Assembly (NCBI GenBank): GCA_947494645.1
Contig: CANLVO010000001.1
Coordinates: 1,922,001 to 1,986,000, forward strand
Reading direction: 5' to 3'
DNA length: 64,000 nt
DNA from: an uncultured Litoreibacter sp.
GTDB taxonomy: Bacteria; Pseudomonadota; Alphaproteobacteria; Rhodobacterales; Rhodobacteraceae
Shown here: positions 5,919-16,404 of the stretch, piece after piece
How positions within the stretch are numbered: the first letter of the stretch is position 1
Layout of the letters: every line of letters begins with the position of its first letter
Notes under the pieces: generated by a model
The model's input: the letters and a program-made list of their open reading frames with translations, nothing else
What the model was told of the DNA's origin: nothing
Database searches by the model: none
Translations under genes and position numbers: made by a program

Positions 5919-5936
5919 AGTGGTGCCCAGGGGCGG
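5919..5936. repeat. Left attachment-site repeat of the tRNA-Phe island
   Basis: The 18-bp sequence AGTGGTGCCCAGGGGCGG occurs here and again, identically, at 16328-16345, where it forms the 3' end (CCA, acceptor strand and part of the T-stem) of tRNA-Phe. This copy has no tRNA attached. Such a pair is what a tyrosine recombinase leaves when an element inserts into the 3' end of a tRNA gene. The integrase gene begins about 140 bp inside this end. Confidence 0.88.
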
Positions 5937-6069
5937 CATTGAAATATCATTCCGGGCCGTTTCAGAAGGTGCCGCATTGAGGATCATACTCAGATAAACT
6001 AACAAAAACATGCGCTAACGTGTTCCATTGCGCTCCAACCTATACTACATAAGGAGGGTGGACTGAAAG

Positions 6070-7278
6070 GTGGACGGAATGTCGCATAGCTTGAATAAGC
6101 TTACCGCTACAGCCCTTAAGGCGCTCAAGCCGGGAAAGTACTCCGACGGCGGTGGGCTCTGGTTCAGTAAGCGTGCTGATGGCGGGGCGCAATGGTTCTT
6201 GCGAGTACATGTGCATGGGCGGCGGCGTGAGATGGGCTTGGGACCGTTCCCCGCTGTTACGCTAAGGGAGGCGAGGGAACGTGCCGCCGAATACCGTTCA
6301 CAGGTACGACAAGGATTAGATCCAATCAAACAGCGGGAGCGAGAAAAACGCGACGCGGTTCGCAACCTGCACGTATTGAGAGACGTGGCCGTAGATGCCT
6401 TTGAGAGCCGCAAGGCAGAATTGAAGGGCGACGGGAAAGCAGGCAGATGGTTCTCTCCTCTTGAACTGCATGTCCTGCCAAGGCTGGGCAAGGTGCCAGT
6501 CTCAGAGATTGATCAAACAGACATACGCGACACCCTAGCTCCGATCTGGCACAGCAAAGCAGACACCGCACGCAAAGCCATGAACCGTCTTGGCATATGT
6601 ATGCGACACGCTGCGGCGCTGGGCTTGGATGTCGACCTTCAAGCGACGGACAAAGCCAAGGCGCTCTTGGGTAAACAACGCCACAAACCTCAGAACGTAC
6701 CTGCGTTGCACTGGCAAGATGTGCCTGAGTTTTATCAAAGTTTAACGGATGGCTCGATAACTCATCTAGCTTTGCGCCTTCTTATCTTAACTGCAGTCCG
6801 GTCGCGGCCCTTGAGGTTTCTGCGTCTGGACCAGATCGACGGCAATGTTTGGACCATCCCAGCAGAGGCCATGAAAGGTCGAAGAGACGCGACCAGTGAT
6901 TTCAGGGTGCCACTGTCGCGAGAAGCCTTGGACGTGATTGAGCAAGCAACTGCGTTTCAGCGTGATGGGTTCTTGTTTCCTAATGTGCGTAAAGGAGTGA
7001 TTTCTGACGCAACGATGTCTCGTCTCATGAAGCGTCGGGGCATGGAGGAGAGGCCGCACGGTTTCCGTTCTTCGTTTAGAGATTGGGTCGCCGAGACAAC
7101 GAACACGCCACATGATGTGGCTGAGACAGCGCTTGGCCATGTGGTCGGCGGGTCGGTTGAGCGCAGCTATCGGCGCACTGACTTTTTAGAACAGAGAGCA
7201 TTACTTATGGAAAGTTGGGCTAGTGGTGTTTCGGGCCACAACGAAAACTTACCTAGAATAGGAGTGCGCATTGTCTAG
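6070..7278 (+). CDS. Tyrosine recombinase (P4-type integrase, DUF4102)
   Basis: The product of about 400 residues opens with the DUF4102 arm-binding domain (LTATALKALKPGKYSDGGGLW). It ends with a tyrosine recombinase catalytic domain: an arginine box TAVRSRPLRFLRLDQI, HGFRSSFRDW (H-x-x-R), the LGH histidine box, and the nucleophile tyrosine in ERSYRRTDFLEQR. All catalytic residues appear present, although box I reads RSRPLR where RTGELR is usual. Translation may start at GTG 6070 (AGGAGG lies 12 bases upstream) or ATG 6079 (MSHSLNKL, AAGGTGG 5 bases upstream). The gene sits just inside the left repeat and should have catalysed insertion into tRNA-Phe. Confidence 0.93.
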   Translation: MDGMSHSLNKLTATALKALKPGKYSDGGGLWFSKRADGGAQWFLRVHVHGRRREMGLGPFPAVTLREARERAAEYRSQVRQGLDPIKQREREKRDAVRNLHVLRDVAVDAFESRKAELKGDGKAGRWFSPLELHVLPRLGKVPVSEIDQTDIRDTLAPIWHSKADTARKAMNRLGICMRHAAALGLDVDLQATDKAKALLGKQRHKPQNVPALHWQDVPEFYQSLTDGSITHLALRLLILTAVRSRPLRFLRLDQIDGNVWTIPAEAMKGRRDATSDFRVPLSREALDVIEQATAFQRDGFLFPNVRKGVISDATMSRLMKRRGMEERPHGFRSSFRDWVAETTNTPHDVAETALGHVVGGSVERSYRRTDFLEQRALLMESWASGVSGHNENLPRIGVRIV

Positions 7279-8017
7279 AGCAGCTTTAGACGCGTCAAAC
7301 TATGCCTGTGATAGTATCGAACGATTTACAACCGATGGGAAGCTTGACTTTCCAGACACTACATTCGCAGAAATTCTAATTAGTTGGGCATCAGGGATCG
7401 ACAAAAAGAATGTGCCTTCTCCCAAGACTGGCTGCCTTGACTTCTACTATGTTGTGTCACGCGGCCTCGCAGAGGGATTGATGCCTATTGCCATGAGTGA
7501 ACCCCAATTTTTTGATGCTTGCGCACTGATATGCCAGATCAACATTGGGGCTGGACAAGCCGTGCCATCTGGCATGGAACTTTTTGCATCTAGGATCCTC
7601 GCGGGAAAGCTTGAACGACCAAAGTTAGCCCACCGTCCTCGCGCAGCACGCTTTCTGGAACAGGCGTATGTATTTAGTTTGATCGGCACCATCGCATCAG
7701 ATTTCGGTCTTAGCCCAACAAGGGCTGAAGGTGGGAAGAACACAGATAGTGCATGTGACATTGTCTCCCGTGCCATGAAGATATGTGGTGTTCACAAAAA
7801 CTACAATGAACTGAAAAACCTCCTAACTCACCCTGATCATAAGCGGCTTCGGTGTGAGATCGAGGCGATTAATACGATTTGGCTACGAGGCCAGGATATG
7901 CGCGCCCTCGGCCAACTGAACTCCTTGTCACCTGACGTGATTGCTCTTCGACAAAGCTTAGATGACTTAACTATTCATCAAATCCTAGGAACTCTGATTG
8001 ACGAGAGAAAAGTCTGA
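7271..8017 (+). CDS. Hypothetical island protein
   Basis: A 248-residue protein with no signal peptide, membrane segment or motif that I recognise. It uses a TTG start at 7271, eight bases before the integrase stop, with AGGAG seven bases upstream, so it should be translationally coupled to the integrase. The composition is mixed, with several cysteines scattered in the middle and a C-terminal region predicted helical (SLDDLTIHQILGTLI). Proteins in this position of P4-type islands are often uncharacterised cargo or helpers of the integrase, but nothing here allows a function to be assigned. Confidence 0.6.
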   Translation: MSRAALDASNYACDSIERFTTDGKLDFPDTTFAEILISWASGIDKKNVPSPKTGCLDFYYVVSRGLAEGLMPIAMSEPQFFDACALICQINIGAGQAVPSGMELFASRILAGKLERPKLAHRPRAARFLEQAYVFSLIGTIASDFGLSPTRAEGGKNTDSACDIVSRAMKICGVHKNYNELKNLLTHPDHKRLRCEIEAINTIWLRGQDMRALGQLNSLSPDVIALRQSLDDLTIHQILGTLIDERKV

Positions 8018-8117
8018 TAGTTTTCTTTTCCTTGCCAAAAAAAGTCGTCTTGTTTTCCAACGTGATCGTCTGCCAAGAGCCTGAAAGTGTATCCGTGACA
8101 CAACATGGAGTGCAGCA

Positions 8118-8279
8118 GTGAACTACCTATCCTTCAAAGAACTTCGAGAAAAACTCGGTGGCCGGGGTCGCACCACCATCTACCGGGACGTGGAACTGGG
8201 CCGATTGCCCAAACCAATCAAACTCGGTTCTCGCCTCTACTGGAATGAAGCTGAAATCGACGCCGCTCTCGCAGGTTAA
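8118..8279 (+). CDS. AlpA-like phage/island regulator (excisionase type)
   Basis: This 53-residue protein begins MNYLSFKELREKLGGRGRT and continues with IYRDVELGRLPKPIKLGSR and a terminal WNEAEIDAALAG. That is the classic AlpA winged-helix pattern: a helix-turn-helix, then the xLPxPxKLGxRxxW signature. AlpA proteins activate integrase or excision genes in P4-like elements and often act as recombination directionality factors. Translation starts at GTG 8118 with GGAG seven bases upstream. Its presence between integrase and replication-like ATPase genes matches the usual layout of such islands. Confidence 0.85.
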   Translation: MNYLSFKELREKLGGRGRTTIYRDVELGRLPKPIKLGSRLYWNEAEIDAALAG

Positions 8280-8391
8280 GACCCACCCAACCTTCTGCGC
8301 GGACGCAGGGCAGGATGAGTGGGAATATAGCGTGGAAACTATCCCTAATATATACGCCTAGCGCCTTTGCAGAGCAAGCAAAGGATCAAAC

Positions 8392-8535
8392 ATGAGAAAC
8401 CAGAACGCGGTCCAGGAGAAAACCGACAAAGACTCCACTCAACTCCGCCAAGAACGGCGCATACGATGGCTGCATGGGTTTGACGGACCAAGAGCGCGAC
8501 TGATTGCCATCCTCTATTTTGGAGATGCGGAATGA
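8392..8535 (+). CDS. Small hypothetical island protein (47 aa)
   Basis: The frame runs from ATG 8392 with an AAGGA ribosome site seven bases upstream. The 47-residue product is highly charged at the N-terminus (QEKTDKDSTQLRQERR) and ends FDGPRARLIAILYFGDAE. Its stop overlaps the next start as ATGA, which supports real translation and coupling. I do not recognise the family. Short coupled genes upstream of a RepA-like ATPase are common in this type of island. Confidence 0.6.
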   Translation: MRNQNAVQEKTDKDSTQLRQERRIRWLHGFDGPRARLIAILYFGDAE

Positions 8536-8906
8536 GAGACGATTTTCAACCGAACCAATTCCGTGAAGCATCCGTCAACCTGCTCTGCGAGGCCATTGCG
8601 AACTGCTACCCTACTGATGCTTTGCAAATACTGTCTGCTGCTCTTGAAGACTTGGAAACCGATGGACCGAGTATCACGTTCTATGACCTTCGATCCGATG
8701 CGAAATTCTGGGCCGAGTGCGCAAGCCCTCGCGAACTGGAGATCTACCTCAGGGCGGTGCTGAGGGTTTTTAGACATCGTGCATTCGCCTTAACTGCACG
8801 AAAGCGCATTTTCGTTTCACTCTGGGACAGCTTCGCCGACGGAGATCGCATCGCCTTTCTTTCCCGTGTTGATCCGGACGGCAAGCGCATAGGGAGGGCT
8901 GCATAA
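8532..8906 (+). CDS. Hypothetical island protein (124 aa)
   Basis: The 124-residue product starts four bases before the end of the preceding small gene and ends on the base that begins the next start codon (TAATG), so three genes are stacked in one translational unit. It is probably helical throughout, rich in aromatic and acidic residues, with no membrane segment. Residues 15-45 (NLLCEAIANCYPTDALQILSA) suggest a helical repeat. No family is recognised. Its link to the downstream ATPase gene suggests a role in replication or maintenance of the island. Confidence 0.58.
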   Translation: MRDDFQPNQFREASVNLLCEAIANCYPTDALQILSAALEDLETDGPSITFYDLRSDAKFWAECASPRELEIYLRAVLRVFRHRAFALTARKRIFVSLWDSFADGDRIAFLSRVDPDGKRIGRAA

Positions 8907-9946
8907 TGTCTGAAGATGTTTGGCTCGATAGCATCGCTGCGATGGAAGACGCTCCACCCAACTCAAATATCGGCGGGCTCCAAACCTTTTCTGCTTTGGA
9001 ACTTCAAAGCAAAGAGTTTGCCCCGGTTCAATGGATAGCACCCGGTCTCATTCCCGAAGGTCTGACGTTGTTCTGCGGCAAGCCAAAGCTGGGCAAGAGT
9101 TGGGCTGCGTTAGATCTCGCTTTTGCGGTCGCTGAGGGCGGTCAATTTCTTGGGACCATCTGCGACCAAGGTGACGTACTTTATCTTGCTCTTGAGGACA
9201 ACCAGCGCCGACTGAAGGACCGTCTCACCAAGATTCAACCGAGCGTGGAATGGCCTTCGCGGCTGAAGTTTGCGGTTGAGGCCCATCGGGTTGATCAGGG
9301 CGGGTTGCAATGCATGGAAGCATGGGCTGCAGAGGTAAAGAACCCACGCCTGCTCATTGTGGACACGTTGGCCACCATCCGCCCCACAGGCGGCGGCAAG
9401 GACGACTACAAAGCTGACTATGCGGCACTGCGCGGCTTGCATCGACTGGCCTCAGAGAGCCGCATAGGCGTCCTTGTAGTGCATCACGTGCGCAAAGCCG
9501 ACGCAGACGACGTTTACGACACTGTATCAGGCTCTACGGGCCTTACGGGCGCCGCTGACGCCACTGTCATCCTTGGTGCAAAGGTCGGAGAGACAGGAAC
9601 CGAGGTGACCCTCTATGGCAAGGGCCGTGACATCAAAGGCTTCCAACATGCAGTAGAGTTTGATGAAGAACGCTGCCGATGGAAATACCTTGGCGATCCA
9701 GACAGCGTATTTGTCGGCGACACCCGCCGTTTGATTATCAAGGCTCTCGAAGATAGCTGTCATACGCCGTCTGCAATCCAGCGACACACAGGGTTGTCTG
9801 AGGCAAACACTGACAAAACCCTAAAGCGCATGGTGGAGAAGGGTCAGATCAAGAAGACAGGCCGTGGCCGCTATGATCTCATCAGCTTCGCACAGGAAAA
9901 AGTAGAAGACTTGTCAGAATTGTCAGGTTGTCAGATTGGGACGTGA
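8906..9946 (+). CDS. RepA/KaiC-like AAA ATPase with C-terminal winged helix
   Basis: This 346-residue protein has a RecA-fold ATPase core. The P-loop is CGKPKLGKSW near residue 57, the Walker B strand is LLIVDTLATIR near 150, and a conserved VLVVHHVRKAD strand follows near 190, as in RepA (RSF1010) hexameric helicases and RadA/KaiC relatives. The last 80 residues (TPSAIQRHTGLSEANTDKTL) look like a winged-helix DNA-binding domain. It probably acts in replication or copy-number control of the excised element. The start overlaps the upstream stop by one base. Confidence 0.85.
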   Translation: MSEDVWLDSIAAMEDAPPNSNIGGLQTFSALELQSKEFAPVQWIAPGLIPEGLTLFCGKPKLGKSWAALDLAFAVAEGGQFLGTICDQGDVLYLALEDNQRRLKDRLTKIQPSVEWPSRLKFAVEAHRVDQGGLQCMEAWAAEVKNPRLLIVDTLATIRPTGGGKDDYKADYAALRGLHRLASESRIGVLVVHHVRKADADDVYDTVSGSTGLTGAADATVILGAKVGETGTEVTLYGKGRDIKGFQHAVEFDEERCRWKYLGDPDSVFVGDTRRLIIKALEDSCHTPSAIQRHTGLSEANTDKTLKRMVEKGQIKKTGRGRYDLISFAQEKVEDLSELSGCQIGT

Positions 9947-10149
9947 ACCTGACAACCTGACTAATCTGACACCTTCTGATCACGGTAGGTTCGGCGAATG
10001 TCTGTTTTGAGCCCGACTCGTTCATCTGATTTCCTCGCTGCATGCGCTCGCAGCATGAGAAGTTCGGCAATAGTACGGTGTTGATTGCCGTAGTTCGCAA
10101 ACTGGATGGGCATAGAGATCTGGAGCGGCGCCGAGGGATCAGTACGTCA

Positions 10150-10398
10150 TTGCGGGCGTCATTGTATCGGCAGGACCGTCAGCCGCGCGAAGAGGGCGAG
10201 CGCGAGGAGCGCAAGCCGTCCCTGAAGGAGCGCTCAGAGGAGATGTTGAACAATCGGGGCAGGATCGGGGGCTGGTCCCCCGCCCTGTCTGTCGCTCAGA
10301 AGGACGAGGTGCGATGCATGAGGGACAAGGAACAGCGCGCCGCACTTGAGATCGTACGGTTGTTTAAAGTCAGCGAACGGACGCCGCGACGAGCGTAA
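10150..10398 (+). pseudogene. Decayed serine recombinase/resolvase C-terminus
   Basis: The last 45 codons read as KERSEEMLNNRGRIGG and then PALSVAQKDEVRCMRDKEQR and EIVRLFKVSERT. That matches the junction between the catalytic domain and the C-terminal helix-turn-helix of Tn3-type resolvases and invertases. Upstream of about 10180 the frame loses all likeness, and no catalytic serine domain is visible, so only a fragment remains. It lies in the 610-bp gap between the RepA-like ATPase and the McrB-like gene, where nothing else is recognisable. It may mark an older insertion that brought in the neighbouring defence genes. Confidence 0.5.
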
Positions 10399-10556
10399 CT
10401 TCGACTTCGCTAAGCGAAGCGGCCTGAACACCAAGCAACCCAAAAAAAAGATAAACGAAATTTCTTCGATTTATCTAGTAGATAGACGATGCTCGCCTTC
10501 AGCATTAGTGTCGTGAATCGATAAGATGAAGAATTGCGACAAGGCGCCCCTATATT

Positions 10557-12320
10557 ATGGCAGACGAAACAAAGATTTATGAAGTCGATTTTTTCAGATG
10601 GTTCAAAGACCAGTTGAAAGACAAGGGCCTGCAATTCTCCCAGTGCGGCTTCAAACTCGGTGATAGCTTGGGCGCGCGTCACGACATTGATTTGCAAACG
10701 GGCTTCTGGAAGGAACCAAACTACTCGGTGAACAAGCCGCCGAGATGGATTTACCAGATTGAGCCTGACGGCGCGGGCTGGAAAGCTGTCAATCCTGCGG
10801 ATGGCGCTCTGAATTTAGGTGCGATCAACGCCTCCCAAGAAGACAAGGCAGGAGTGGTGTTTCGCTTGGTGCCGTTGGTGCAGCAGGGGATAACTGACTA
10901 TTTCCGCGACGACAGCCTCGAAGTCCACGCGCTCTTCGTATTCCACGGTGCAACGCCGCAAGGTTCTTCTGCGGAGCCCTTCAACTTCGATCCTGACAGT
11001 GGGGCAATGACGTTCAAAGGCGCTCCCCTGCCCTATCTGATGGCGGGTCTTCTTGGTGTGCAGCCGCGCGATCAGGAGGTCGAGGTGACGCTCAATAGCA
11101 TACCACGCACGCTGACCTATGGCGAGGTGAGTGACACACTGGCGGCGGGCATTACGGTATCGCCGGAAGGCGGTGCGGCGGTGCCGATCCCCGTCTATGA
11201 CTTGAGCGACAAGGCGGAGTTCGAACGGCTGAAGAAGAATATCTCCGACGCTTGGAAGGCGGCAGGACCTGTAGCGCCCCCGGTTGTTGCGGCGGGCTAT
11301 GGCATTGATGACGAGGAAAACGAAGCAGTAGATGACGACGAGATCGTCGCGCCTGCCTCGCTGCAAATCCCCGAGATGACTGATCTTTTGGGCATCGACC
11401 CTGCGGTTTATCGCCAGATCAATGCTGCGCTCGCCTCGGGCAAGCAGCATATTATGCTCTATGGCCCGCCAGGGACGGGGAAGACGACGCTTGCGCGCCA
11501 TATTGCAACGGTGCTGACGGGCGGGAAATGGACATTGGTAACGGGCTCCTCGGATTGGAGTTCCCAGGACATCATCGGTGGCTATCAGCCTATCGGCAGC
11601 GGATCGGTAGCTTTCATCCCCGGGGTTTTGCTGCGGCGCTTCGACCGTCCGCTCATCATCGACGAGCTAAACCGGTGTGACATCGACAAGGTGATCGGGC
11701 CGCTCTTCACAGTGCTGTCGGGTCAGCAAACTACTCTACCCTACCGGCTCGATATTGAGGACAAAGACAGCCTGCAATATGTGATCCTGCCGGAAAGCAA
11801 GCCTTCGGCGGCCTCGCATGAGTTTGCGCCGGGACCGCATTGGCGGTTGGTGGCGACGATTAACTCCATCGACAAGGCGTCCCTCTATCAAATGTCCTAT
11901 GCACTCGCACGACGCTTTGGCTGGGTCTATGTAGATGCCCCCAGCGACACGGCAGGTTTCATTGAAGCCTTCCTACGCAAGGAGGAGCCTGCCTGGTCGG
12001 GGCCGGCGGCAGGAGCCCCCTGCCCTCTCTCCAAATTTTGGGAAGCGATCAACTCGGTACGGGTGATCGGTCCTGCGCCAATCATCGACGCGATGAAGGC
12101 TGTCCAGGCGATGGAAGAAGACGCAGAGTTCTTCGCCACACCGGCGGCTTCAATGAAGGAAGCCCTGCTCGATGCGGTAGACATGGTGCTACTCCCTATG
12201 CTTGACGGTATTGTTGTGCAGGATGCGGAGTTTCTGGCTAGCAAGGCCGTGGAGGTCTTTGGTCTTGATGCTGATCAGAGTATACGGATTAAAGCGCGGA
12301 TGGCCTCCGTGGCGGTGTGA
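10557..12320 (+). CDS. McrB-like AAA+ ATPase/GTPase (restriction subunit)
   Basis: The 587-residue protein has an N-terminal 270 residues of unknown fold ending in an acidic linker (DDEENEAVDDDE). An AAA+ module of the McrB/MoxR type follows: Walker A YGPPGTGKTT near residue 300, a Walker B region LIIDELNRCDIDKVIG near 366, and a sensor and arginine-finger stretch ATINSIDKASL to LARRFGW near 430. In McrBC the B subunit recognises DNA and translocates along it using GTP, with the C subunit as nuclease. Here the next gene, overlapping by one base (TGATG), encodes a PD-(D/E)XK nuclease, supporting that reading. The specificity domain is not a family I recognise. A MoxR-type chaperone is the alternative. 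Confidence 0.78.
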   Translation: MADETKIYEVDFFRWFKDQLKDKGLQFSQCGFKLGDSLGARHDIDLQTGFWKEPNYSVNKPPRWIYQIEPDGAGWKAVNPADGALNLGAINASQEDKAGVVFRLVPLVQQGITDYFRDDSLEVHALFVFHGATPQGSSAEPFNFDPDSGAMTFKGAPLPYLMAGLLGVQPRDQEVEVTLNSIPRTLTYGEVSDTLAAGITVSPEGGAAVPIPVYDLSDKAEFERLKKNISDAWKAAGPVAPPVVAAGYGIDDEENEAVDDDEIVAPASLQIPEMTDLLGIDPAVYRQINAALASGKQHIMLYGPPGTGKTTLARHIATVLTGGKWTLVTGSSDWSSQDIIGGYQPIGSGSVAFIPGVLLRRFDRPLIIDELNRCDIDKVIGPLFTVLSGQQTTLPYRLDIEDKDSLQYVILPESKPSAASHEFAPGPHWRLVATINSIDKASLYQMSYALARRFGWVYVDAPSDTAGFIEAFLRKEEPAWSGPAAGAPCPLSKFWEAINSVRVIGPAPIIDAMKAVQAMEEDAEFFATPAASMKEALLDAVDMVLLPMLDGIVVQDAEFLASKAVEVFGLDADQSIRIKARMASVAV

Positions 12321-13558
12321 TGGCGACCCTCGACCGGGCTATCAACGACTATGCGGCGGGGGTGTTCCTTCGGTATTTCCGGCAAGGGACACTTGCGGGG
12401 GCGGAAAGCCCTCATCTTGATCACGCACGGGACCTGGACTTGCTTCGCGCGCATTGGGCACTGTCGGAACCCGTGCGGACATTTCTATCCTATCTACTGA
12501 CGCATCGGCACGAAGCCCAAAGCCTGCTGCAATTCGTCAAACGGACGGACGATGCTGTCGCGCGTGGGCGGATCGACGCGCGCGATACGATGCTCGCACG
12601 GCGTGTTTCTGGGCATCCGTCACTCGTGGTCTACGAAGAGCCAGTGCGTAGCTTTAACACGGGGCCAAACCAAGTAGTTGCGTGGGTGGTCCAGACAGCT
12701 TCGACCTACGCGGCGCGGCTCTTCGCCGTTCAGCCTAAGGGATCGGCCTATGCCGGTCTTGTCGAAGAAACGATGGCGGATGTGACGGCAGTAAAGCGCC
12801 TCGATGCCTTGCGCGAGGTGCTGAAGAACGTGTCCGTCCATCGCAGGCCGGGACCAGGAGCGTTGCGGGACGCCGCGCGGTCACGACGGATGATCTATCG
12901 GCTGGCAATAGCTGCATTTGATACTCTGGCGCGAATTGAGGCGGGAGACGAAGAGGCGCTGAGCAGCGTTCTGCAAAGCACGCTCATCGGACCTTTGGAG
13001 CAGTGGCGTCGCTTTGAGTTGGCTGTGGGACTCGGAATCGGCGAAGCCCTCGCTGCGGAGACGGGCGAACCGATGAACCTTGCCCTACTCGGTAAGACAT
13101 CTGGAGCGCCGGTCATTTCGTGCGGACGTTATGACATCTTCTGGCAGGGTAGCGGTGGATTGTTCGCCGCCCCCGCCCTAGAGCCCTCTGAAGAGCGACT
13201 GGAAGCGGCTCTGGCAGCTTATGGAATGAATCTCGCAGCGGATCGGCCGGATTTGGTGATCACCGACCGGCAAGCCGGTCGGGCAAAGGGAATTGTCGAG
13301 GTCAAGTATCTGGCGGGTGACACGGCAAACGCCCGCTTCCGCGAGGCTGTGGGGCAAATCGTGCGCTATGCACGTGGCTATGCACCGGAAGCGGAGATAG
13401 ATGGCCTGGTTCGCGCCTCACTCGTTGCTCTGAACCGCAGCCCCCCTGCCCTAATAGATGAAGCAGCCGCAGCGCCGCGCGCAGTGGATTTCGAGGGGTT
13501 AACAGATGGGCGGTTGCGGCTTTGGGTACGGGAGAGGTTGCTTGCTCCCCCTGCATAG
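12320..13558 (+). CDS. McrC-like PD-(D/E)XK nuclease subunit
   Basis: The 412-residue protein starts at ATG 12320 (a GTG one codon earlier is possible), overlapping the McrB-like stop by one base. The first 260 residues are helical with a short N-terminal domain. The C-terminal part holds a nuclease core: a metal-binding aspartate in DRPDLVITD near residue 308, EVKYL near 328 (the E-x-K half), and a helix REAVGQIVRYARGY. This is the arrangement of PD-(D/E)XK nucleases such as McrC. It should cleave DNA when driven by the upstream ATPase. Overall likeness to E. coli McrC is limited, so this could be a distinct branch. It converges with the methyltransferase, 22 bp apart. Confidence 0.72.
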   Translation: MATLDRAINDYAAGVFLRYFRQGTLAGAESPHLDHARDLDLLRAHWALSEPVRTFLSYLLTHRHEAQSLLQFVKRTDDAVARGRIDARDTMLARRVSGHPSLVVYEEPVRSFNTGPNQVVAWVVQTASTYAARLFAVQPKGSAYAGLVEETMADVTAVKRLDALREVLKNVSVHRRPGPGALRDAARSRRMIYRLAIAAFDTLARIEAGDEEALSSVLQSTLIGPLEQWRRFELAVGLGIGEALAAETGEPMNLALLGKTSGAPVISCGRYDIFWQGSGGLFAAPALEPSEERLEAALAAYGMNLAADRPDLVITDRQAGRAKGIVEVKYLAGDTANARFREAVGQIVRYARGYAPEAEIDGLVRASLVALNRSPPALIDEAAAAPRAVDFEGLTDGRLRLWVRERLLAPPA

Positions 13559-13580
13559 CAAAGGGCAGAGGGAGCGGTGT

Positions 13581-14822
13581 TTACTCGGCGGCAATCTTTG
13601 ACGCAGCCTTCTTGCGCATCGAGGCAGGGCGTTGAGCGCCACCGTCTGCGAAGAGCGTCACTTTTTCTTCGTTCACAGGAAGGGCGCACGGCGATGCAAT
13701 TTCGTAGGGGATGCCGCGATCCTTGGGCAACGGTTGAAGCGTCGGTTCAAAGCGAGCGCGCGCACCAAGGAGGTATTCTTCGGATAGCTCACAACATGTC
13801 CAGCGACGTTTCAAATTCTCAGCCACGACGCCTGTGACGCAAGAGCCGCCGAACGGATCAACGACTAAATCGCCGGGATCAGTCAGGAAGCGAATGAAAT
13901 ATTCAGGGAGTTGCGCGGGAAAGCGTGCCGGATGAATTGGGATGTTTTCGGCGCGACAGTTATCTTGGTAACGCCCATTGGATTCCGTATTCGCGATGGC
14001 CAGCAGGTTCGGCGGGACAGAACCGCCGTTGTCCTTGTTGAACTTGTCAGAAATGTCATGCCCGGATGGGCGTAGCTTGGCTTTGTAACCATTTTTCAGC
14101 AGATGCTTCATCGACTTGGAATACGGCTGAAGGACGCGTTTGTTATTGGCTTTGGGAAATGGTGTCTTTGAGAGCCACCAGACGGTGTTTACAGCGTCTT
14201 TGACGCGCACACGGCGGACGTTGACCCATTCAGCTGGAGTTGGGAGCTTTGACGGGTTGAACCAGTAATGCTCCTGACACAGATGAAAACCATACTCCTC
14301 AACCAGCATGACGAGGAGTTTGAAGTGGTAGAGACTGCGGGTTGGTTGCCCTGGCACCCATGCACCGCCAATGTCGATGACTAGGCTACCCGTATCTTTC
14401 AGGACGCGATGCGCACCTTCGGCAAAGGGTCGAAACCAGTCGCAATACCGATCCGCGTCTTCATTTCCATAGCTCTTCTTTCGCACCAATCCGAAAGGCG
14501 GCGAAGTCATGATGAGATCGACGCTGTTCTCTTTGGCCTTATTGAATAGGTAGCTGCGGCTATCGCCCCAAAGAATTTCACCATGTTCAGTCTTGTGAAA
14601 CGGTCGCAGCAGTTTAGCAGGAAAATCGCGTGGGTTGATCTTTTTCGTTCCTAAGTCAGGCTGCTCCGTCTGGGAAAACTGCGCATGAAGAGCGCGAAAA
14701 TACTCGCTGAGAGAGTTATATCCTTGAGTAGCAGCAGCAGCTTCTATTTCCGAACGCTCTTCTTCTGTGAGACGGACATTTGCTGCCTTAGTTCTTGGAT
14801 TCGTTGCTTTTGGTCGCGCCAT
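13581..14822 (-). CDS. PvuII-like site-specific DNA methyltransferase (probable m4C)
   Basis: This 413-residue protein has a beta-class amino-methyltransferase layout: catalytic motif TSPPFG at residues 106-111 precedes the SAM-binding motif DPFGGSCVTG at 322-331. TSPPF is typical of N4-cytosine enzymes. Segments such as FNPSKLPTPAEWVN, RVRVKDAVNTVWWLSKT and HPARFPAQLPE strongly recall M.PvuII, which modifies CAGCTG, but the target here is not provable from sequence. Unlike M.PvuII it has an extra N-terminus (residues 14-48, RLTEEERSEIEAAAATQGYN) resembling a ribbon-helix-helix DNA-binding domain, perhaps for autoregulation. No PvuII-type nuclease lies nearby; the convergent McrB/McrC-like pair is the likely partner. 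Confidence 0.88.
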   Translation of the reverse strand: MARPKATNPRTKAANVRLTEEERSEIEAAAATQGYNSLSEYFRALHAQFSQTEQPDLGTKKINPRDFPAKLLRPFHKTEHGEILWGDSRSYLFNKAKENSVDLIMTSPPFGLVRKKSYGNEDADRYCDWFRPFAEGAHRVLKDTGSLVIDIGGAWVPGQPTRSLYHFKLLVMLVEEYGFHLCQEHYWFNPSKLPTPAEWVNVRRVRVKDAVNTVWWLSKTPFPKANNKRVLQPYSKSMKHLLKNGYKAKLRPSGHDISDKFNKDNGGSVPPNLLAIANTESNGRYQDNCRAENIPIHPARFPAQLPEYFIRFLTDPGDLVVDPFGGSCVTGVVAENLKRRWTCCELSEEYLLGARARFEPTLQPLPKDRGIPYEIASPCALPVNEEKVTLFADGGAQRPASMRKKAASKIAAE

Positions 14823-14962
14823 TTGATTCCTCGCCGGTTTTGCAAGCGCACCCTAACTGAGTGTTTTTTGTAACACAACAACCAGATGGAATAACCGTCA
14901 CACAGAAACGAAAAGAATGACCTAACGCTGGCGAAGAAGTGCAAGCTATGGGGCTGGCTAGC

Positions 14963-15205
14963 TCATCTTGTCGGATTGTTGACGTCTGAGTGGAAACGGC
15001 AAGCAGTACAACGAACCCTTGAGCTAATCCTATCGAGGTGCGTATCTTCCGGAAACCTCTGCAGAAGCTGGTAAGGCGCAACCAATTGCCGCCCAGAGCA
15101 TTTGGGACAAACAAGCTCTACGCAATCTGTGGCCGTCAGCGCTTCTAAGCGCATCGCAAAACGGAAACCGATACTTTTGGGACGTAATGGTATGGCTTGG
15201 AACAT
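14963..15205 (-). CDS. Small zinc-ribbon hypothetical protein
   Basis: The 80-residue product contains two CxxC knuckles, CPKC and CTAC, about 30 residues apart, separated by PYQLLQRFPEDTHLDRISSR. This arrangement should bind one zinc ion. Short proteins of this type, with a leucine-rich spacer between knuckles, are common hypotheticals in alphaproteobacteria. An internal ATG (15154, MRLEALTATD) may be the true start. It lies upstream of the methyltransferase in the same direction with a 140-bp gap. Function is unknown. Confidence 0.58.
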   Translation of the reverse strand: MFQAIPLRPKSIGFRFAMRLEALTATDCVELVCPKCSGRQLVAPYQLLQRFPEDTHLDRISSRVRCTACRFHSDVNNPTR

Positions 15206-15302
15206 AAGATGAACATTGCTTCACTGAACAGGGAGAAGTATTATCCCAGTTAGTTTCGACAGATCTCCGTTCAACAGTGGTCTAGGTACTCCCTAAAATT
15301 GA

Positions 15303-15848
15303 TTGGATCGACCTGTGAAAGATGCTGTCTCCAATTCGAAAAAAAAGACGGAAGCCAGCGTCAAACTAAACTGGGACGAGTGCAAGCGCAGCCTGCTTAT
15401 AGAGCAGATCGAAGGCTCGAAGATTATTTCAGACGCGATGGGGCACGCAAAGGCGACGGCCGCGTTGATCAAGCAGATTGCCATTCTAGGGTCCCAAGGC
15501 AATGCAATAGACGAAGACGCTTCAAATTTTGTCTTGGGGTTCATGGATTCTATGAAACCAAGGGATGCCGCAGAAGCGCTATTGTTTGCGCAGATGGCTG
15601 CGGTTCACCAAGCAACCATGATGATGGTGAGACGCCTCACACATGTTGAAAACATACCTCAACAGGATGCGGCTGAGAGGGCGCTCAACAAACTGGCGAG
15701 AACTTACTCAAAGCAGATTGATACGCTGCATCGTTACAGGAAAAGCGGAAAGCAAGTAGTGCGGGTCGAGCGCGTGAACGTTGAGAGCGGCGGGCAGGCC
15801 ATTGTTGGCGACGTAAGCCACGGGGGGCGGGTTAGTGACCAAAATTAA
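15303..15848 (+). CDS. Hypothetical protein paired with an HGGxGG gene
   Basis: A 181-residue soluble protein with a basic N-terminus, a helical centre (KPRDAAEALLFAQMAAVHQATMM) and a conserved-looking stretch HVENIPQQDAAERALNKLAR, followed by VNVESGGQAIVGDVSHGG. I recall this pattern from genes lying directly upstream of HGGxGG-motif proteins in alphaproteobacterial islands and prophages. The function is unknown. Its 3' end overlaps the next gene by 14 bases, so the pair is co-translated. Confidence 0.68.
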   Translation: MDRPVKDAVSNSKKKTEASVKLNWDECKRSLLIEQIEGSKIISDAMGHAKATAALIKQIAILGSQGNAIDEDASNFVLGFMDSMKPRDAAEALLFAQMAAVHQATMMMVRRLTHVENIPQQDAAERALNKLARTYSKQIDTLHRYRKSGKQVVRVERVNVESGGQAIVGDVSHGGRVSDQN

Positions 15849-16104
15849 CGCAAACCCCATGCAAAGGGCGCATGACGCGCCCAGATGCACTGCGCACTCG
15901 AAACGCTCCGGCCTTCTGTGCAAGTCCCCTGCCGTGAGAGGATGGAGAGTCTGCCGGATGCACGGAGCGGGTGGGGGGCAAAGACAGGGAAGATCTCATT
16001 CGGGGTACCGGCATGGGATGCGCTCGAAAGAGAATGACCTCCTTCGACGCTTATTATCGGAACTTGGCAAGCAGTCCCGCGAACAGTTGCAGGATTTAAC
16101 CTAA
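15835..16104 (+). CDS. HGGxGG-motif small protein
   Basis: This 89-residue basic protein contains CTAHSKRSGLLCKSPAVRGW, then CRMHGAGGG and a GYRHGM segment. The paired cysteines and histidines (C-x3-H, C, C-x2-H) suggest a small zinc-binding unit, and the HGAGGG stretch is the family hallmark. Such proteins are frequent on alphaproteobacterial prophages and islands, but no function is known. The start is GTG 15835, with ATG 15859 as an alternative. It is the last gene inside the island before the tRNA-Phe repeat. Confidence 0.72.
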   Translation: MTKINANPMQRAHDAPRCTAHSKRSGLLCKSPAVRGWRVCRMHGAGGGQRQGRSHSGYRHGMRSKENDLLRRLLSELGKQSREQLQDLT

Positions 16105-16327
16105 CTTGGTGTCTGCGAGATAGCAGTTACTGCCCCCTACTGCCCAGTCAGGGCTGCAATCTTTGTGTAGGGGTCATCTGCTTAAGAAAGTTCCCTTCTG
16201 AGCATCGCCAGGCGAGTTTTTTCCCAAGTTTCGAGGAAGAACTTATGCTCCAAAGGTGGTCGAAAGGGTGGATCAACTCCGCTTCCGTAAAATCATTATT
16301 AATCTTTTCAGAAGCTTAACAAAATAT

Positions 16328-16345
16328 AGTGGTGCCCAGGGGCGG
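16328..16345. repeat. Right attachment-site repeat within tRNA-Phe
   Basis: This copy of the 18-bp repeat AGTGGTGCCCAGGGGCGG covers the CCA end, the 3' acceptor strand and the beginning of the T-stem of the intact tRNA-Phe. It pairs with 5919-5936 to define the island. The 220 bp between it and the HGGxGG gene hold no gene that I can see. Confidence 0.88.
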
Positions 16346-16404
16346 ATTTGAACCACCGACACGAGGATTTTCAATCCACTGCTCTACCCCTGAGCTACCC
16401 GGGC
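16330..16404 (-). tRNA. tRNA-Phe (GAA)
   Basis: The reverse strand folds as a 75-nt tRNA with encoded CCA. The acceptor is GCCCGGG pairing with CCTGGGC (one G-T wobble), the D-stem is GCTC/GAGC, the anticodon loop is TTGAAAA with anticodon GAA, and the T-arm is GGTGG TTCAAAT CCGCC. The anticodon stem GTGGA/TCCTC contains one T-T mismatch. The gene remains intact because the island restored its 3' end on insertion. Confidence 0.95.

What the first reader, a model, noticed from the sequence alone, without database searches (positions are those of the whole stretch)
10557..14822. McrB/McrC-like nuclease pair convergent with a PvuII-like methyltransferase
Seen: AAA+ ATPase (GPPGTGKTT, DELNRC) and PD-(D/E)XK nuclease overlapping by one base, ending 22 bp from a TSPPF/DPFGGS methyltransferase. 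Known: classic McrBC has no methyltransferase and cuts modified DNA; LlaJI-type systems combine McrB/C-like subunits with m5C enzymes. Inference: this is a three-gene restriction-modification system of LlaJI-like logic but with m4C protection. The ATPase's N-terminal 270 residues match no specificity domain I know. This is the best candidate for an undescribed system here.
Basis: partly seen in the sequence, partly recalled or inferred. Interest (0 to 1): 0.78.

Follow-up and report, generated by a model that had tools for sequence, protein, structure and literature searches.

The report
AAA+ restriction system with PvuII-type methylase
A mobile island in a bacterium carries three genes, for a motor protein, a DNA-cutting enzyme and a DNA-marking enzyme, that most likely work together to destroy incoming DNA lacking the cell's own chemical mark, with a DNA-reading part that resembles nothing in the libraries searched.

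Summary
Confirmed: a McrB-like AAA+ ATPase (10557-12320), a PD-(D/E)XK nuclease overlapping it by one base (12320-13558) and, 22 bp away and convergent, a methyltransferase (14822-13581). They travel together: the methylase accompanies the pair in 21 of 26 records; the five misses all have a truncated nuclease gene; the three distance matrices agree (r 0.95-0.98). The methylase is 54% identical to M.PvuII through its catalytic and target-recognition region, so CAG(m4C)TG is the predicted mark; R.PvuII and C.PvuII are absent. The ATPase's N-terminal ~240 residues have no credible Pfam or fold match and were found only in this system. The nuclease is related to one paired with similar ATPases in haloarchaea and Priestia; its link to McrC is only suggestive. 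Best reading: a new variant of NTP-dependent restriction-modification that works like LlaJI but is not a member. Restriction, the CAGCTG site and the operator are inferred. The unit rides on a 10.4-kb integrase island in tRNA-Phe.

The parts
10557..12320 (+). McrB-like AAA+ ATPase subunit, 587 aa; AAA_5 domain residues 298-454 (about 11448-11918), Walker A 303-310, Walker B 366-374, NxxD motif (NSID) 436-439, RRF 452-454
   Evidence: (McrB structures 6hz4 E 9.7e-12, 6ut6 E 3.4e-11, residues ~294-483)
10557..11276 (+). N-terminal domain of the ATPase (about residues 1-240), candidate recognition domain; confident predicted fold (mean pLDDT 82 for residues 1-285) without detected relative
12320..13558 (+). 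PD-(D/E)XK nuclease subunit (412 aa from ATG; GTG at 12317 also possible); RPDL...IVEVKY at 13244-13309
13581..14822 (-). PvuII-type beta-class DNA methyltransferase, 413 aa, predicted to make CAG(m4C)TG
   Evidence: 1boo, E 4e-110; 155 of 289 identical to M.PvuII, 54%
14691..14798 (-). ribbon-helix-helix (NikA-like) domain, residues 9-44 of the methyltransferase
   Evidence: PF21983, E 7.7e-6, 26.4 bits, cut-off 27; 9 of 10 further system methylases match PF21983 at E<=0.01, two of them at or above the cut-off, the tenth matches MobC_2; 0 of 10 other PvuII-like methylases match
14896..14904 (-). predicted operator copy 1, TGTGTGACG
14869..14877 (-). predicted operator copy 2, TGTGTTACA, overlapping the putative -35
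14850..14878 (-). putative methylase promoter TTGTGT-N17-TAGGGT (inference from conserved columns)
   Evidence: not called by the consensus scan
5919..5936 (+). att repeat, left end of the island (18 bp)
16328..16345 (+). att repeat, right end of the island, covering the 3' end of tRNA-Phe (16330-16404, minus strand)
   Evidence: empty site in congener G932
6070..7278 (+). tyrosine integrase of the island (vehicle, not part of the restriction unit)

Best explanation
A mobile three-gene restriction-modification system. The methyltransferase marks CAGCTG as CAG(m4C)TG on host DNA. The ATPase forms a McrB-like ring whose orphan N-terminal domain recognises the same site when unmodified; nucleotide hydrolysis drives the complex along DNA, and the PD-(D/E)XK partner, docked on the ring as McrC is on McrB, cuts. 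The methylase's RHH domain binds the two TGTNNNACR elements at its own promoter and holds the methylase at a moderate level, so that incoming DNA is not protected too soon. Shown here: gene layout, conservation, co-inheritance, M.PvuII relationship, RHH domain, conserved upstream element, mobility. Inferred: cleavage, the CAGCTG site, recognition by the N-terminal domain, ring and translocation, RHH binding to the element.
For: Methylase convergent with the pair in 18 of the 23 loci, plus the window, Ensifer and Novacetimonas copies: 21 of 26 records; the five misses (L019, L025, L028, L031, L033) all have truncated nuclease genes. Nuclease and methylase frames are open in the others, with two blemishes: L030's nuclease lacks residues 1-17, Novacetimonas' methylase crosses the record start in two frames. 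Protein distances agree (r 0.946, 0.960, 0.979; 0 of 2000 permutations each; 16 loci). M.PvuII relationship through the target-recognition region; no R.PvuII or C.PvuII in the window or 28 loci while the positive control is found. McrB-type AAA+. The nuclease is related to the partners of similar ATPases, proteins that I found through those ATPases (hhalign probability 97.3, E 2.6e-11, 321 columns). Precedent: R1.LlaJI binds LlaJI-site DNA (PMC1459862, passages). Operator pair in 16 of 18 methylase upstream regions, in 2 of 18000 shuffles, and nowhere in 400 kb of own genome on both strands; no pair upstream of 19 ATPase genes.
Against: No activity data. CAGCTG is not clearly avoided: observed/expected 0.63 in 400 kb of own genome (rank 18 of 64 palindromes), 0.76 in a congener (rank 27), 0.86 in the window (rank 41), 0.68 in 100 kb of the Ensifer plasmid (rank 18), 0.52 in the Novacetimonas plasmid (2 sites), 0.50 in the island (1 site). 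Nuclease-McrC homology not significant (probability 15.5). Nuclease model of low confidence (pLDDT 67.5). More distant ATPase-nuclease pairs stand without an annotated PvuII-type methylase. The consensus scan does not call the proposed methylase promoter. Co-occurrence was measured on loci found through the nuclease, so ATPases without it would be missed; a profile of the ATPase N-terminus found one further copy, cut by its contig end and not informative.
Confidence: 0.68

Rival explanations
1. Modification-dependent (Type IV, McrBC-like) nuclease plus an independent neighbour: the pair cuts foreign modified DNA and the methylase merely travels with it.
For: McrB-type motor; of seven plasmid loci with distantly related ATPases that I inspected, five show no annotated DNA methylase in the stretch (the plasmid gene tables are incomplete), two do.
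Against: Methylase present in each of the 21 records with a nuclease that is not truncated at its C-terminal side, and co-evolving. E. coli McrBC breaks the chromosome and kills cells in which M.PvuII makes CAG(m4C)TG (PMC2614495, passages), so a nuclease of McrBC specificity beside a PvuII-type methylase would be self-destructive.
Confidence: 0.12
2. Methylase-guided anti-phage system without simple cleavage (BREX/DISARM-like or abortive infection): the methylase marks self and the ATPase-nuclease blocks replication or kills the infected cell.
For: AAA+ plus methylase is shared with such systems (recalled); PADLOC gives no match for the nuclease, so a non-classical effector is possible.
Against: No BREX or DISARM signature family among the island proteins scanned with Pfam; nuclease motifs kept in 17 of 17; PADLOC matches of the ATPase are confined to the stretch around Walker A (about residues 282-346).
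Confidence: 0.12
3. Restriction-modification unit as above but with a site other than CAGCTG, or with the nuclease rather than the ATPase N-terminus reading the site (this overlaps the best explanation, of which it is a variant).
For: Specificity can shift among relatives at 54% identity (general knowledge); no clear CAGCTG avoidance; the nuclease's long N-terminal part is also of unknown role and poorly modelled.
Against: Identity to M.PvuII runs through the target-recognition region; in LlaJI and McrBC the McrB-type subunit reads the site (PMC1459862, passages; PMC12707154, passages).
Confidence: 0.2

Closest known systems
LlaJI restriction-modification system (Lactococcus pNP40)
   Same: McrB-like AAA+ subunit with unique N-terminal half, PD-(D/E)XK partner, cognate methylation; the McrB-like subunit binds site-containing DNA (PMC1459862, passages)
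   Different: One PvuII-type amino-methylase instead of two m5C methylases; convergent instead of co-directional genes; no B3 domain detected; RHH-fused methylase
McrBC (Type IV)
   Same: AAA+ motor with Walker A/B, NxxD and RRF; nuclease gene directly downstream (McrBC layout recalled)
   Different: Cognate methylase present; no SRA, EVE or DUF3578 match in the N-terminus; nuclease not recognised by PF10117
PvuII restriction-modification system
   Same: Methylase 54% identical over the catalytic and recognition region
   Different: R.PvuII and C.PvuII absent; methylase has an extra RHH domain; an ATPase-nuclease pair instead
Methyltransferase-associated McrB GTPase branches of the CoCoNuT census (PMC11090510, passages)
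   Same: McrB-type motors with an Nx(xx)D motif next to predicted DNA methyltransferases; the paper announces a separate description
   Different: The passages I saw name no PvuII-type m4C methylase, RHH fusion or such N-terminal domain; whether this family is among their branches could not be checked
Methylases whose N-terminal HTH represses their own gene (PMC3874152, passage)
   Same: DNA-binding N-terminal extension; operator overlapping the methylase promoter
   Different: Ribbon-helix-helix instead of helix-turn-helix; here predicted, not shown

Membership tests
LlaJI-type RM | McrB-like AAA+ restriction subunit | tested here: met
LlaJI-type RM | McrC-like PD-(D/E)XK subunit | tested here: inconclusive
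   PD-(D/E)XK motifs in 17 of 17; hhalign with 9 PF10117 members probability 15.5, catalytic motif aligned
LlaJI-type RM | two m5C methyltransferases for an asymmetric site | tested here: not met
   one N6_N4_Mtase of M.PvuII type beside the pair
LlaJI-type RM | B3 domain in the McrB-like subunit | tested here: inconclusive
   no PDB fold match at E<=0.001; 159 matches to E 10, of which the best 50 were shown, none a B3 domain; no Pfam B3 match
LlaJI-type RM | restriction of unmodified DNA at the methylated site | not testable with these tools
   needs experiment
McrBC Type IV | no cognate methyltransferase | tested here: not met
McrBC Type IV | McrC family PF10117 nuclease | tested here: not met
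   nuclease has no PF10117 match at E<=1; own genome has none at E<=0.001
McrBC Type IV | known modification-binding N-terminal domain (SRA, EVE, YTH, DUF3578) | tested here: not met
   no such Pfam match in 18 members at E<=1; no fold match
PvuII RM | M.PvuII-type methylase | tested here: met
PvuII RM | R.PvuII and C.PvuII | tested here: not met
   tblastn on the window and 28 loci with positive control; one chance hit of 22 residues, E 0.8, outside the island
MADS / IetAS defence systems | ATPase matching over its length | tested here: not met
   PADLOC hits confined to the stretch around Walker A

The most novel reading that the evidence does not exclude
A separate class of NTP-dependent restriction-modification: a McrB-type ring with a new DNA-reading fold that recognises unmodified CAGCTG, a highly diverged nuclease partner outside PF10117, and a PvuII-type m4C methylase that is also the unit's own ribbon-helix-helix repressor.
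Probability: 0.45. Interest if true: 0.7.

Novelty: new variant of a known kind. Interest (0 to 1): 0.56.

Why it matters
Motor-driven restriction enzymes that read an unmodified site are known from LlaJI and few others (review passage, PMC12707154). This one has a likely known site, CAGCTG, so the site, the cleavage pattern and the role of the N-terminal domain can be tested directly. It would add a recognition fold, a nuclease family that the profile libraries searched here miss, and a methylase-RHH fusion as a regulator. It also shows the PvuII-type methylase being combined with unrelated effectors.

Tried and rejected
Nuclease against Pfam (best E 0.076), PADLOC and NCBIfam (nothing at E<=1) and PDB sequences (best E 0.53): no family. 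Its model is weak and the fold search gave BstEII at E 0.31 and a restriction-endonuclease-like protein at E 2.6. A joint profile on 398 genomes of the phylum found only the own copy at E<=1e-5, so the wider family could not be enlarged. Phage records: no nuclease match. CAGCTG avoidance as support for the site: not clear. ATPase N-terminus against Pfam: only implausible short matches (Cecropin, best E 0.0014, in 2 of 18 members; Tox-PAAR-like in 4; VEK-30 in 1). The McrC comparison was first done with wrongly oriented frames and repeated. The spacing used in the shuffle test (30-34) did not fit the observed 26-28 and was redone.

Rows left out: L048, L047 and L049 from the nuclease family profile; L061 (wrong frame length), L063 and L064 (partial matches) from the McrC set; L006, L007 and L008 from the alignments given to structure prediction, whose rule admits only certain loci; from the 26 records L005 (a 33-residue fragment), L052 (ATPase cut at residue 454 by the contig end) and second fetches of the same contigs (L001-L004, L008-L010).

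Considered and rejected: DISARM or BREX (no signature family in the island proteins scanned); chance neighbourhood or assembly artefact (same layout on plasmids, islands and contigs of several taxa).
Full report
OBSERVATION. The three ORFs, the motifs, the 22-bp gap and the one-base overlap are as described (overlap counted from the ATG at 12320). Pfam gives AAA_5 for the ATPase (residues 298-454), N6_N4_Mtase for the methylase and nothing useful for the nuclease. In the PDB the best sequence relatives of the ATPase are midasin and McrB (6hz4 E 9.7e-12, 6ut6 E 3.4e-11, residues about 294-483). It has NSID, a form of the McrB signature NxxD (motif from PMC11090510, passages).

ONE UNIT. A pattern scan with nuclease profile A1 found 18 loci in the collection that holds one genome for each of 84,980 species and 5 in viral contigs. 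tblastn of the three proteins on these 23 loci: methylase convergent downstream in 18; absent in L019, L025, L028, L031 and L033. With the window and the Ensifer and Novacetimonas plasmids that is 21 of 26 records. Duplicates: L029 equals L016 over 8984 bases; L021 is 99.7% L018 on the same contig; L019 and L031 are one sequence. All five misses have a truncated nuclease: residues 1-355 fused into a phage capsid gene (L019/L031), residues 1-126 followed by phage tail genes (L033), or other junctions close to a contig end (L025, L028). L030 has the methylase but its nuclease lacks residues 1-17, with foreign sequence between. The Novacetimonas methylase crosses the record start in two frames. 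In the remaining loci both frames are open to their ends (nuclease 408-422, methylase 413-422 codons). The loci were found through the nuclease, so lone ATPases would be missed. In 292 genomes of the window's order the nuclease is in 5, own genome included, one of them a 33-residue fragment. Protein distances agree among the three (16 loci, r 0.946-0.979, 0 of 2000 permutations).

METHYLASE. 155 of 289 aligned positions are identical to M.PvuII (54%; residues 73-358 of 413), target-recognition region included. M.PvuII makes CAG(m4C)TG (PMC2614495, passage). R.PvuII and C.PvuII have no match in the window or 28 loci beyond one 22-residue hit at E 0.8 outside the island, while the positive control is found. 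Ten other PvuII-like plasmid methylases stand beside R.PvuII (L039), a 'restriction endonuclease' and an HNH gene (L034), an HNH gene (L035), a 'restriction endonuclease' (L043), or no annotated restriction enzyme (the other six). So this methylase type is combined with unrelated effectors.

REGULATION. Residues 9-44 resemble the NikA-like ribbon-helix-helix family (E 7.7e-6, 26.4 bits, cut-off 27). Of ten further system methylases nine match it at E<=0.01 (two at or above the cut-off, the weakest at E 0.0035), the tenth matches MobC_2 at E 0.0096. The N-terminus is alike in all 18 system methylases printed. None of the ten other PvuII-like methylases matches an RHH family at E<=0.01; two carry Mrr_N instead. 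Upstream of the methylase two TGTNNNACR elements 26-28 bp apart occur in 16 of 18 loci (the exceptions, L013 and L027, keep the second; the second is in 18 of 18), in 2 of 18,000 shuffled sequences, and nowhere in 400 kb sampled from the own genome, both strands. Upstream of 19 ATPase genes there is no pair, and a single match in 2. The second element overlaps a plausible -35 (TTGTGT-N17-TAGGGT; inference; not called). Predicted: the methylase represses its own gene. Methylases doing this with a helix-turn-helix are known (PMC3874152, passage). A search for RHH versions (15 of 53 papers listed; passages of three read) showed none.

ATPASE N-TERMINUS. AlphaFold model of residues 1-285 from 18 sequences: mean pLDDT 82, pTM 0.78, residues 243-265 of very low confidence. 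Foldseek: no PDB match at E<=0.001 (best 0.19, probability 0.06), no viral match (best 0.16). Pfam: only implausible short matches. tblastn in plasmids at E<=10: the two orthologues plus two hits at E 3 and 4. Profile search of 289 genomes of the class: own genome and one more, an ATPase copy cut at residue 454 by its contig end. So it is an orphan domain, 39-92% identical to the window's among 20 sequences, in the place where R1.LlaJI and McrB read DNA.

NUCLEASE. RPDL, (I/V)EVKY and RFREA..Q..RY are kept in 17 of 17. Similar AAA ATPases on plasmids of haloarchaea, Salinibacter and Priestia (tblastn) are followed by unnamed proteins of 421-475 aa; four of these, aligned without the Salinibacter one, match this nuclease over 321 columns (hhalign probability 97.3, E 2.6e-11). 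Of seven such plasmid loci inspected, Natronosalvus, Halalkalicoccus, Salinibacter, Deinococcus and Halobacterium show no annotated DNA methylase in the stretch; Priestia has an m5C methylase with an NgoFVII-type enzyme nearby; Paenarthrobacter has two divergent methylase genes. Against nine PF10117 (McrC) proteins: probability 15.5, catalytic motif aligned, other parts not. I call it McrC-like in position and architecture; membership is open.

VEHICLE. An 18-bp repeat at 5919 and 16328 brackets a 10.4-kb island ending in tRNA-Phe. In congener G932 the two flanks abut with a 17-bp overlap (left flank 205695-206913, right flank 204628-205711 of contig 6). Other copies lie beside tRNA-Ser with a large serine recombinase (L009), near tRNA-Arg (L026), or on plasmids (L024 by its record title).

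PRIOR WORK. LlaJI (PMC1459862, passages): R1 with McrB-like C-terminal half and unique N-terminal half binds the LlaJI site; R2 carries PD-(D/E)XK; both are needed in vivo, while purified subunits showed no nuclease or GTPase activity. Its B3 domain is from a review passage (PMC12707154). The McrBC census notes DNA methyltransferase-associated McrB branches, announced for a later paper (PMC11090510, passages). Search listings in the open library (8 of 8; 48: 6 of 6; 57: 20 of 24; 68: 2 of 2; 69: 7 of 7; 116: 11 of 11; 117: 15 of 180) show by title and abstract start no paper on a McrB-type system with a PvuII-type methylase, apart from McrBC acting against M.PvuII (PMC2614495). Closed journals and REBASE were not searched.

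VERDICT. New variant of a known kind: works like LlaJI, is not a LlaJI member (the m5C methylase pair was tested and not met). What is shown and what is inferred is listed in the best explanation.

Noticed in passing
window 5919-16345: 10.4-kb integrative island in tRNA-Phe with a tyrosine integrase, an AAA_25 helicase/primase-like gene (8906-9946) and small unnamed genes; empty site in congener G932.
   Followed up: yes
L010 694-2544 (same as L019, L031); L033 2281-4173: In two distinct sequences the nuclease gene is joined, after residues 355 and 126, to phage capsid or tail genes; recombination between a phage and the restriction unit, or assembly chimeras.
   Followed up: partly
L018 and L021 (CATOTI010000001.1, about 43 kb apart): Two 99.7% identical copies of the system in one Pseudomonadales metagenome contig.
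   Followed up: no
L041 3701-4888, L042 3686-4885: PvuII-like methylases of Microvirga and Azospirillum plasmids carry an N-terminal Mrr_N domain, another likely DNA-binding fusion.
   Followed up: no
L044, L045, L046, L048, L050: AAA_5 ATPase plus unnamed downstream protein on plasmids of haloarchaea, Priestia and Salinibacter, the ATPases differing in length; the downstream protein has no Pfam family (all five) or PADLOC family (three scanned).
   Followed up: partly
L009 12908-14389: Large serine recombinase gene next to the methylase in the Tabrizicola copy, unlike the tyrosine integrase of the window: the unit rides on different recombinases.
   Followed up: partly
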